The notes beneath the pieces were generated by a model, which was given only the letters and a program-made list of their open reading frames with translations, was not told where the DNA came from and ran no database searches. 43,294 nt of DNA from an uncultured Terriglobus sp. GTDB taxonomy: Bacteria > Acidobacteriota > Terriglobia > Terriglobales > Acidobacteriaceae. This document shows positions 30,872 to 33,304 of the stretch, piece by piece. The stretch lies in assembly GCA_937873305.1 (NCBI GenBank), contig CALMOM010000010.1, positions 11,824 to 55,117 of the forward strand, given 5' to 3'. Both the position numbers and the translations under genes were made by a program. Each line of letters begins with the position of its first letter. The stretch's first letter is position 1.

Positions 30872-32056
30872 ATGACCACCCAGCTGCCTGAACTGCGGCA
30901 ACTCCTCACCGGCCAGGCGGAAGCCTGGCACCTGCGCCTGCGTGCGTTGGTGCTGTGCGAGTCGCCGACCGAGGACGCCGCTGCAGTAAACCGTGCCATG
31001 GACATGGTGCAGGGCTGGGCAGTAGAACTCGGCGCCAGGGCCGTGCGGCACCCGCAAGAGGCGCATGGAGACGTGCTGGAGCTGTGGTTTGGCCCCGCCG
31101 AGAGCGACGGAAAGCCGCTGATGCTGCTGGGCCACCTGGACACGGTGTGGCCGCAGGGCATACTCGCTACCATGCCGTGGCGCGAGGCACCGGACAGCAC
31201 GGGCCAGCAGCGATTGTGGGGTCCAGGCGTCCTCGACATGAAGGCGGGAGTGGTGATGGCGCTGGCTGCCATCGAAACCGTGCAGAAGACCGGCAGCCTG
31301 ACGCGCCCGGTTGTGCTGCTGCTGAACCCGGATGAGGAGACCGGCAGCGCCATCTCCCGCGCGCACACGGAGCGCCTCGCACGCGGTGCAGAGGCCGTTT
31401 TCGTACTGGAACCCGCGCAGGGGCTGCCCGGATCCCGGGACAACGCCGCGTACAAAACGGCGCGCAAGGGTGTCGGCCAGTACCGGCTTGACGTAACCGG
31501 CGTGGCCTCGCACGCGGGGGTGGACTTCGAGCGCGGCCACTCCGCCGTGCTGGAACTCGCCACGCTCCTGCAGCAGGTGGCGCGCTTCACCGATCTCTCA
31601 AGCGGCCTGACGGTGAACCCCGGCGTCATCGGCGGAGGCACCCGCAGCAACGTGATCGCGGCAGAGGCCTGGGCCGAAGTGGATGTGCGCATCGCACGCC
31701 TGATCGACGAAGGACGCGTCGACACACTGTTCCATGAACTGTGCGTCAGCAATCCATTCTGCCGATTGCGCGTGACCGGCGGCATCAATCGTCCACCCAT
31801 GGAGCGCGGCCCTGGCACAGTGCGCCTGTACGAGCAGGCACGAACCATGGCAGCCGAGCTCGGCTTCGACTTGCCCGAGGCCAGCACCGGCGGCGGTTCC
31901 GACGGCAATTTCACCGCCGGTCTTGGCATCCCGACGCTGGACGGCATGGGAGCCGTAGGTGAGGGCGCACACGCCGCGCATGAGTCCATCCTGCTGGACC
32001 ACCTCTTGCCTCGCACGGCGCTGCTCGCGGGCATGATCGCGTCGCTATTGCACTAG
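30872..32056 (+). CDS. M20-family metallopeptidase, carboxypeptidase G2-like
   Basis: This 394-residue di-zinc amidohydrolase has L-G-H-L-D-T-V-W-P (H88, D90), the bridging Asp in W-G-P-G-V-L-D-M-K-A-G (D122), and the catalytic pair E155/E156 in N-P-D-E-E-T-G-S. The dimerisation domain contains G-V-A-S-H-A-G-V, and the C-terminal zinc His lies in G-A-H-A-A-H-E-S. The nearest type is glutamate carboxypeptidase (CPG2), which cuts C-terminal Glu from folates or peptides; the natural substrate cannot be told. No signal peptide is seen. Its stop is one base from the convergent higA stop. Confidence 0.92.
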   Translation: MTTQLPELRQLLTGQAEAWHLRLRALVLCESPTEDAAAVNRAMDMVQGWAVELGARAVRHPQEAHGDVLELWFGPAESDGKPLMLLGHLDTVWPQGILATMPWREAPDSTGQQRLWGPGVLDMKAGVVMALAAIETVQKTGSLTRPVVLLLNPDEETGSAISRAHTERLARGAEAVFVLEPAQGLPGSRDNAAYKTARKGVGQYRLDVTGVASHAGVDFERGHSAVLELATLLQQVARFTDLSSGLTVNPGVIGGGTRSNVIAAEAWAEVDVRIARLIDEGRVDTLFHELCVSNPFCRLRVTGGINRPPMERGPGTVRLYEQARTMAAELGFDLPEASTGGGSDGNFTAGLGIPTLDGMGAVGEGAHAAHESILLDHLLPRTALLAGMIASLLH

Positions 32057-32057
32057 C

Positions 32058-32354
32058 TCAGGCTGCGGTTTGCACCTGGAACGGTCGCACCTTGATGGAC
32101 TTTTCGCGTTTACGCGCCGCCGCTATGTTGTACGAGGCCTGCATGCGCATCAGCAGCTCCATGCTAACGCCAAATGCCTTTTCCAGGCGAAGTGCCATGT
32201 CACCGGAAAGGTCGGATTTGGCATTCAGCAGATTCGATAAAGCTGGCCGAGACACGCCAAGCACCTTCGCCGCCGCCGTCACCGTCAGGCCCGTCGGGTC
32301 TATGATTTCGGCTTTGACAAAAGTACCGGTATGCGGCGGACTTTTCATAGGCAT
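32058..32354 (-). CDS. higA: HigA-type antitoxin, XRE helix-turn-helix
   Basis: This is a 98-residue antitoxin and repressor. The helix-turn-helix is L-T-V-T-A-A-A-K-V-L-G-V-S-R-P-A-L-S-N-L-L-N (about 23-44), followed by the VapI/HigA pattern D-M-A-L-R-L-E-K-A-F-G-V. HigA binds HigB and the operon operator. An AGGAG overlapping the higB stop region lies nine bases before the ATG. The gene appears intact, whereas the toxin gene 13 bases upstream carries a nonsense codon. Confidence 0.9.
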   Translation of the reverse strand: MPMKSPPHTGTFVKAEIIDPTGLTVTAAAKVLGVSRPALSNLLNAKSDLSGDMALRLEKAFGVSMELLMRMQASYNIAAARKREKSIKVRPFQVQTAA

Positions 32355-32367
32355 CGCTTCATCGCTC

Positions 32368-32658
32368 CTAGTGGTAGTCCTCTAAATCAACATTGCAGAT
32401 GGCTTGCGCTTCCTCGTCAAGGTAGAAGGTAAGCCGCCAATTACGGGTGACAAAGAGGTTCCAGGTTCCCCTGCGGTCACCTAGTAGCTAGTGCGCCTTC
32501 CACATTCGAAAGCTTTGCAGTTCTCGTACATCTTCTAAGTCATCCAGTACTGCCAGCATGTTGCGCAGCTTGCCCGCGGCTGTTGCTGGAATGGCTTGAG
32601 CACTATCGTCCTCGTACAAGTGGCGCAAACCTTTGTGCAGAATGTTTCGGATCTGCAT
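32368..32658 (-). pseudogene. higB: HigB toxin gene interrupted by an in-frame TAG
   Basis: Reading the minus strand from ATG 32658 gives M-Q-I-R-N-I-L-H-K-G-L-R-H-L-Y, later A-A-G-K-L-R-N-M-L-A-V-L-D and F-R-M-W-K-A-H, then TAG at 32490-32488. The same frame continues L-L-G-D-R-R-G-T-W-N-L-F-V-T-R-N-W-R-L-T-F and ends D-L-E-D-Y-H at 32368. That is the conserved C-terminal half of RelE/HigB mRNA interferases (G-D-R-x-G-x-W, N-W-R, E-D-Y-H). One codon is therefore the only visible lesion; without it the gene would encode 96 residues. A truncated 56-residue product would lack the active site. Order toxin-antitoxin and the operator upstream are those of normal higBA. Confidence 0.8.
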
Positions 32659-32669
32659 TGCTCCACGAC

Positions 32670-32688
32670 TGTAGCGTGTAACGCTACA
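32670..32688. promoter_or_regulatory. Operator palindrome of the higBA operon
   Basis: TGTAGCGTGTAACGCTACA is a palindrome with 8-base arms (TGTAGCGT/ACGCTACA) and a three-base centre, 11 bases upstream of the higB start. Sites of this shape are bound by HigA-type repressors. It looks unaltered. Confidence 0.7.
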
Positions 32689-32728
32689 CCGGTCGATTTC
32701 TTGTGGACTGGTAAGTGGTCAAATCGCT

Positions 32729-33304
32729 TCATGCAGGCTGCTGCAGTAGCATGGCCAGCCGTGCTAGCGGCAGGCCCACCACGTTGCTGTAGTCACCCTC
32801 AATGCGCGGAATCCACTGCGCGGCGCGGCCCTGGATGGCATAGGCGCCGGCCTTGTCCGTGGGCTCGCCGGTAGCCACGTAGGCGGCGATTTCGTATTCG
32901 CGCATGGTGCTGAAGTATACGTCGGTGGTCTCGGTGGCAGTCAGCGTCAGGTCGCACGAGAGCACTGCCACCGCAGTGGTCACCTGGTGGGCGCGGCCGC
33001 TCAGCCGGCGCAGCATGCGTGCCGCGTCGGCTGCGTTCTGCGGCTTGCCCAGTAGCTCCGAATCAACGGCGACGGTGGTGTCCGCACCAATCACAACCGC
33101 GTCCGGGTGCAGCGCGAGGATGGCACGCGCCTTCTCCTCGGCCAGGCGCAACGTATACACGGTGTGCACCTCGCTGGGCAGCGGCGTCTCGTCAATGTCT
33201 GCGACGACCACGGTGAACTGCAAGCCGAGCTGTGCAAGCAGTTCGCGTCTGCGTGGCGAGGCAGACGCAAGAATCAGCGGTCGTGCCGGTTGCAGCGGGT
33301 TCAC
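32729..33304 (-). CDS. maf: Maf-like nucleoside triphosphate pyrophosphatase
   Basis: This 191-residue house-cleaning enzyme hydrolyses non-canonical or excess NTPs (dTTP/UTP type). Family motifs are S-A-S-P-R-R-R-E-L-L at the N-terminus, the catalytic Asp in V-I-G-A-D-T-T-V, G-K-P-Q-N-A-A-D-A, G-A-Y-A-I-Q-G-R-A and I-E-G-D-Y-S-N-V-V-G-L-P. Four-base overlap with the end of rpiA upstream shows an operon mutarotase-rpiA-maf. Confidence 0.93.
   Translation of the reverse strand: MNPLQPARPLILASASPRRRELLAQLGLQFTVVVADIDETPLPSEVHTVYTLRLAEEKARAILALHPDAVVIGADTTVAVDSELLGKPQNAADAARMLRRLSGRAHQVTTAVAVLSCDLTLTATETTDVYFSTMREYEIAAYVATGEPTDKAGAYAIQGRAAQWIPRIEGDYSNVVGLPLARLAMLLQQPA

What the first reader, a model, noticed from the sequence alone, without database searches (positions are those of the whole stretch)
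32368..32658. HigB toxin inactivated by one nonsense codon beside an intact antitoxin
The frame is continuous through recognisable HigB motifs on both sides of a TAG at 32488-32490 (minus strand). HigA, its ribosome-binding site and the operator are preserved, so this looks like a recently disarmed toxin-antitoxin module or a lone repressor in the making.
Basis: seen in the sequence. Interest (0 to 1): 0.55.

Follow-up and report, generated by a model that had tools for sequence, protein, structure and literature searches.

The report
Disarmed HigB toxin beside intact HigA
A bacterium carries a toxin-antitoxin gene pair whose toxin gene is cut short by one stop codon while the antitoxin gene stays intact; a related species lacks the toxin gene at the same spot but keeps the antitoxin, so this looks like a real but familiar kind of gene decay.

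Summary
On the minus strand a 96-residue HigB frame (32658-32371) is broken by one TAG (32490-32488). Both halves match a HigB profile made without the window (51.6 and 50.4 bits; 114 read across), and it is the only PF05015 place found in this draft genome. HigA (32354-32058) is intact. In 10 of 17 other genus genomes maf adjoins the M20 peptidase gene with no higBA match between them, which points to an insertion. The only other genus genome with a close HigA (G017, 81%) has it at the same site, intact and constrained (pairwise dN/dS 0.09), with no detectable HigB. Among 58 HigA places from 200 genomes of the family, upstream HigB is uninterrupted in 36, has stops in 3 (window included), is split or deleted in 4, partial in 2, undetected in 13. 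RF1 is present and none of 42 tRNAs found reads UAG. The palindrome is there, but the -35 box is 4 of 6, against TTGACA in 17 of 20 relatives. Most likely a recently disarmed module whose HigA remains as autorepressor or idle antidote. Ordinary in kind.

The parts
32491..32658 (-). HigB, first 56 codons (open; would give a truncated product)
32488..32490 (-). in-frame TAG at codon 57 of higB, a column that varies among relatives
32371..32487 (-). HigB codons 58-96, not translated as it stands; no in-frame ATG, GTG or TTG; ends in DYH like the relatives
32368..32370 (-). native higB stop (TAG), at the family's usual end
32058..32354 (-). HigA antitoxin, 98 aa, intact
32365..32369 (-). AGGAG, possible ribosome-binding site of higA, 10 nt before its ATG
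   Evidence: read directly; function inferred
32670..32688 (-). operator-like palindrome TGTAGCGT-3-ACGCTACA
32691..32696 (-). -35 position (TCGACC, 4 of 6; relatives TTGACA)
32668..32673 (-). -10 position (TACAGT, as in many relatives)
32729..33304 (-). maf, upstream flank of the insertion
30872..32056 (+). M20 peptidase gene, convergent flank of the insertion

Best explanation
A complete chromosomal higBA (type II toxin-antitoxin) module entered between maf and the M20 peptidase gene in the ancestor of this genome and of G017 (inferred from synteny). In this genome one nonsense codon now ends HigB after 56 of 96 residues, before the C-terminal part that holds the family's active-site histidine, and no usual start codon lies in frame downstream, so no working mRNA-cutting toxin should be made (the break is shown; loss of activity is inferred). 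HigA is still encoded and most likely still binds the palindrome in its promoter. As GraA-type HigA represses without its toxin and the toxin lifts repression, loss of HigB should leave the operon steadily repressed by HigA (inferred from GraTA, passages of PMC6393540). Once silent, the toxin is free to decay; the antitoxin outlasts it because it costs little, or because it keeps some use as repressor or antidote. G017 shows a further state: no HigB, HigA still intact.
For: Both halves are recognisable; only PF05015 place found in the draft genome; HigA intact. Site without higBA in 10 of 17 other genus genomes; in the other 7 no M20 match lies within the flank of about 1.5 kb held around maf. 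HigA window/L013: pN 0.10, pS 0.62, dN/dS 0.086, against 0.142 (M20), 0.058 (lpxC), 0.076 (39 codons of maf); Fisher p about 1e-17 on rounded counts. RF1 529 bits; 42 of 42 tRNAs found were typed, none with anticodon CTA; 8 of 34 long mechanical ORFs of the window end in TAG. HigB with stops, split, deleted or partial beside HigA in 8 other family places, one of which has N bases there.
Against: The HigA constraint covers all the time since the two genomes parted, including time with HigB, so it does not prove use as a lone gene; HigA pS is high (dS 1.29). Repression by HigA is untested. The weak -35 hexamer may mean low expression. The window's HigB has a somewhat deeper protein-tree path relative to HigA than most relatives (2.13; 29 relatives 0.92-2.87). 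The genome is a 223-contig draft, 94% complete, and no reads were available.
Confidence: 0.8

Rival explanations
1. The TAG is a consensus or assembly error and higBA is intact.
For: Draft genome of 223 contigs; only one disabling change; HigB otherwise nearly normal. Fragmentary ParE-type places elsewhere in this genome could also reflect a poor assembly.
Against: A substitution, not an indel; HigB is also missing at the same locus in G017; the -35 hexamer is off consensus too.
Confidence: 0.1
2. The TAG is read through at low level (leaky stop or suppressor), giving a throttled toxin, which would explain why both genes look kept.
For: Frame and end are intact past the stop; HigB shows little extra change.
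Against: No CTA anticodon among 42 tRNAs found, RF1 present; none of 29 aligned relatives has a stop at that column; the two other in-frame-stop cases of the family survey have stops at other positions and other codons. The tRNA set of the draft is incomplete.
Confidence: 0.04
3. HigA is kept because it neutralises incoming related HigB toxins from plasmids or other elements (anti-addiction).
For: Related HigA genes occur in 613 plasmid records, at best 66% identical; the idea is stated for orphan antitoxins in PMC7354431 (passages read).
Against: No incoming module was seen in this genome; no cross-neutralisation tested.
Confidence: 0.12
4. HigA has become a regulator of other genes.
For: Reported for P. 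aeruginosa HigA (passages of PMC6987408); HigA is kept without detectable HigB in G017.
Against: The palindrome occurs once exactly in G000; sites at up to 3 mismatches number 9 there against 14 for the reversed-pattern control, and 7 against 23 in G017. The one 2-mismatch site in G000 lies inside a 592-codon ORF.
Confidence: 0.07

Closest known systems
HigBA of Proteus vulgaris (HigB chains 4mct, 4mcx, 4px8; species from recall)
   Same: HigB frame aligns end to end with X at the stop, E 2.8e-14
   Different: HigB is interrupted here after 56 residues; its HigA is only a weak match (4mcx_A, E 6e-4)
GraTA of Pseudomonas putida (6f8s, 6f8h) and HigA of P. aeruginosa (6jpi, 7csv); organism names partly from recall
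   Same: best solved relatives of the window HigA (E 7e-9 to 4e-8); in those systems the antitoxin alone binds a palindromic operator (passages)
   Different: toxin broken here; operator sequence differs; binding untested
Orphan antitoxins left by decayed type II modules: parE pseudogene beside ParD in Caulobacter and a frameshifted YacB in Shigella (passages of PMC7354431); HigA-1 as a frequent orphan in marine MAGs (passages of PMC12654330)
   Same: intact antitoxin, broken or missing toxin
   Different: here a site without the module, the module with a broken toxin, and HigA without HigB can be compared at one locus within a genus

Membership tests
HigB-like toxin (PF05015) | profile match over the curated cut-off | tested here: met
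   39.1 bits against 27, only when read across the stop as X; 21.2 for the first half alone
HigB-like toxin (PF05015) | an open frame giving the whole domain with its C-terminal active-site region | tested here: not met
   stop after 56 of 96 codons; so it is a HigB pseudogene, not a HigB toxin gene
HigA antitoxin (TIGR02607) | profile match over the curated cut-off, with an HTH domain | tested here: met
   84.9 bits against 47.7; HTH_3 41.9 bits against 23
type II higBA module | toxin gene directly upstream of antitoxin gene with a shared promoter and operator | tested here: met
   13 bases between the frames; palindrome between -35 and -10 positions; -35 weak; promoter activity not tested
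type II higBA module | toxin arrests growth and antitoxin neutralises it | not testable with these tools
   needs expression tests
GraA-like autorepressor | antitoxin alone binds its palindrome | not testable with these tools
   sequence similarity only

The most novel reading that the evidence does not exclude
The 56-residue HigB stub is still made and still binds HigA. In GraT the listed residues that contact GraA are 34-49 (passage of PMC6393540), which by the alignment range corresponds to about residues 30-45 here, inside the stub. The stub would then be a harmless modulator of HigA repression: a toxin-antitoxin pair turned into a plain regulator pair, with G017 having gone on to a lone HigA.
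Probability: 0.05. Interest if true: 0.5.

Novelty: new member of a known kind. Interest (0 to 1): 0.25.

Why it matters
It gives one locus at which three states can be compared within a genus: a site without the module, higBA with a freshly broken toxin, and HigA without HigB. That makes the question of what keeps orphan antitoxins testable, but broken toxins beside intact antitoxins are already described (passages of PMC7354431).

Tried and rejected
Considered and rejected: a reassigned or suppressed TAG; a HigA regulon by operator search (fewer sites than the control; the 2-mismatch site is inside an ORF); a HigB relic in the G017 spacer (blastn best E 0.12 over 16 bases, tblastn best E 1.1, no profile hit); a known RNA in that spacer (Rfam, L013 and L001, none at E up to 0.5); phage origin (23 phage records, each under 60% identity).

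Limits. In 'uninterrupted' means a near-full-length profile match without stops; start codons were not checked. Of the four 'split' places, three lie in two frames (L062, L198, L201) and one is an in-frame internal deletion (L079). Of the two 'partial', L084 has N bases there. 'None' (13 of 58) is not the same as lost HigB: in L191 and L194, and in L033 of the other set, the upstream ORF looks to me, from recall, like a PIN-type toxin, so those HigA relatives may have another partner; and two of the 13 (L080, L081) have a HigA that is itself incomplete at its start. Only HigA hits at E up to 1e-15 were classed; G017 is not among those 200 genomes. Of the 46 loci (L013 included): 30 uninterrupted, 2 split, 2 partial, 11 none, 1 contig edge; they were found by peptide patterns and are not a random sample. 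HigA dS (1.29) is near saturation. Promoter count: 20 relatives with the spaced promoter out of 23 with a HigB start and HigA at least 60% identical; L017, L018 and L019 were left out because they do not share the layout. The pN ratio used the 109 pairs with HigA pN over 0.1. The HigB profile holds one locus twice and one deleted copy.

Full report
What is there. On the minus strand, upstream to downstream: maf (Maf, PF02545), a promoter region with a perfect 8+8 palindrome at 32670-32688, the HigB frame 32658-32371 with a TAG at 32490-32488 and its native stop at 32370-32368, and HigA 32354-32058. A convergent M20 peptidase gene ends at 32056. The frame is HigB: PF05015 39.1 bits with X at the stop. 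A profile from 52 relative matches without the window (51 loci, one with a deletion) gives 51.6 bits to the first half and 50.4 to the second, and the other window frames listed score below 0 bits. It aligns end to end with solved HigB chains (E 2.8e-14). The 39 codons after the stop contain no ATG, GTG or TTG (read). The active site of this family lies around a C-terminal histidine (His92 of GraT, passages of PMC6393540), which the stub lacks.

Is TAG a stop in this genome? RF1 is present (529 bits against a cut-off of 423). The 42 tRNAs found in the draft were typed and none has anticodon CTA; some ordinary tRNAs are missing from the set, so it is not complete. Of 34 largely non-overlapping long ORFs in the window 8 end in TAG; these are mechanical ORFs, but LpxC (PF03331) is one of the 8. 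TAG therefore most likely acts as an ordinary stop.

History of the locus. The window lies in a 3.64 Mb draft of 223 contigs. I infer the genus Terriglobus, because the same-genus genome G017 has a contig of the same length (10,563) and the same HigA as CALMRM010000052.1, titled as an uncultured Terriglobus MAG. In 10 of the 17 genus genomes other than G000 and G017, maf and the convergent M20 gene are neighbours with no HigA or HigB match between them; in the other 7 no M20 match lies within the flank held around maf. A HigA close to the window's occurs in one other genus genome, G017, at the same site; the other genus matches are at most 38% identical. There HigA is 81% identical and intact, but the roughly 500 bases between maf and HigA hold no HigB that blastn, tblastn or the profile can see. 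Simplest history: one insertion, then loss of HigB on both branches by different events, HigA kept on both.

Constraint. Window and G017 HigA: 98 codons, differences by codon position 14, 11, 44, pS 0.62, pN 0.10, dN/dS 0.086; M20 0.142, lpxC 0.058, 39 codons of maf 0.076. A Fisher test on rounded counts gives about 1e-17. This includes the time when HigB was still present. A closer view of the lone state comes from two genomes of another genus of the family, where HigA sits directly behind the same gene with no HigB found in either (L184, L080). HigA dN/dS is 0.119 and that of the gene in front 0.112, so HigA without HigB seems constrained there; but in L080 HigA is itself broken near its start, so such HigA genes do decay in the end.

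How far has HigB gone? It departs at 1 of 20 columns conserved in at least 90% of 29 relatives; those relatives depart at 0 to 3. The ratio of amino-acid change in HigB to that in HigA is 1.43 (median of 21 pairs with relatives), against 1.23 for 109 intact pairs, inside their deciles of 1.03-1.60. On protein trees its HigB-to-HigA depth ratio is 2.13, higher than most of the 29 relatives but inside their range of 0.92-2.87. So little has changed beyond the stop, and the break looks recent on this scale, with room for some relaxation before it. Against full preservation: the -35 hexamer is TCGACC (4 of 6), while 17 of 20 relatives with the same promoter layout have TTGACA, and the spacer differs from theirs. 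A weak -35 is not tied to loss: L015 (split HigB) and L077 (uninterrupted HigB) both have 4 of 6, and L062 (split HigB) has 6 of 6.

How common is it? In 200 genomes of the GTDB family (G017 not among them), 58 HigA places were found in 41 genomes. Upstream HigB is uninterrupted in 36, carries in-frame stops in 3 (window, L199 with two, L208 with one), is split between frames in 3 and internally deleted in 1, is partial in 2 (one of them, L084, with N bases), and is not detected in 13. Some of the 13 may have other toxins. Among the 26 places with HigA at least 60% identical: 16 uninterrupted, 1 stop, 1 split, 1 partial, 7 none. The window's case is thus one of several.

How it most likely works. 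GraA, a solved relative of this HigA, represses its promoter alone, and the toxin lifts repression (passages of PMC6393540); P. aeruginosa HigA also binds its palindromic promoter without toxin (passages of PMC6987408). By analogy HigA here should hold its own promoter down with no HigB to release it. Shown: intact HigA, a palindrome in the promoter region, a broken HigB. Inferred: binding, repression, absence of toxin activity. The palindrome is found once in G000 without mismatch and not in G017 at up to 2 mismatches, so a wider regulon through this site is not supported.

Known or new. Broken toxins beside intact antitoxins and orphan HigA are in print (passages of PMC7354431 and PMC12654330; paper searches). 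I did not search for this locus in print. The finding is a real, new example of a known kind.

Noticed in passing
G000:C88 (L221 400-640), G000:C177 (L219 510-756), G000:C87 (L220 415-564): Three of the five ParE-type (PF05016) places found in this genome are fragmentary: C88 is partial, with an in-frame TAG 60 bases before the matched part (whether that TAG lies inside the gene is not shown); C177 is split between two frames; C87 is a partial match. An open reading frame lies beside each, but Pfam names none of these as an antitoxin. C103 and C50 match nearly full length. With HigB, 4 of 6 RelE/ParE-type places look broken; no control count was made.
   Followed up: partly
L013 130-625 (G017:C52): The spacer in the place of HigB has two perfect 11-bp hairpins and a 77% similar stretch at G017:C55:144-280. 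No Rfam match; no match in the 18 other genus genomes at E up to 0.001.
   Followed up: partly
L063 (G171:C94): HigA without detectable HigB is continuous in frame with an upstream ORF, giving a 254-residue reading frame.
   Followed up: no
L184 (G171:C289) and L080 (G154:C45): HigA without detectable HigB sits directly behind the same gene in two genomes; in L080 HigA is itself broken near its start.
   Followed up: partly
L199 (G156:C16), L208 (G098:C258): Two other HigB frames beside HigA with in-frame stops at other positions: two stops in L199, one in L208.
   Followed up: partly
window 32670-32688 and HigA 32354-32058: The operator is a perfect palindrome here but looks imperfect in the relatives, and HigA of the window and G017 share NLLNAK where several relatives have SLLNGK near the HTH; operator and antitoxin may have changed together.
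   Followed up: no
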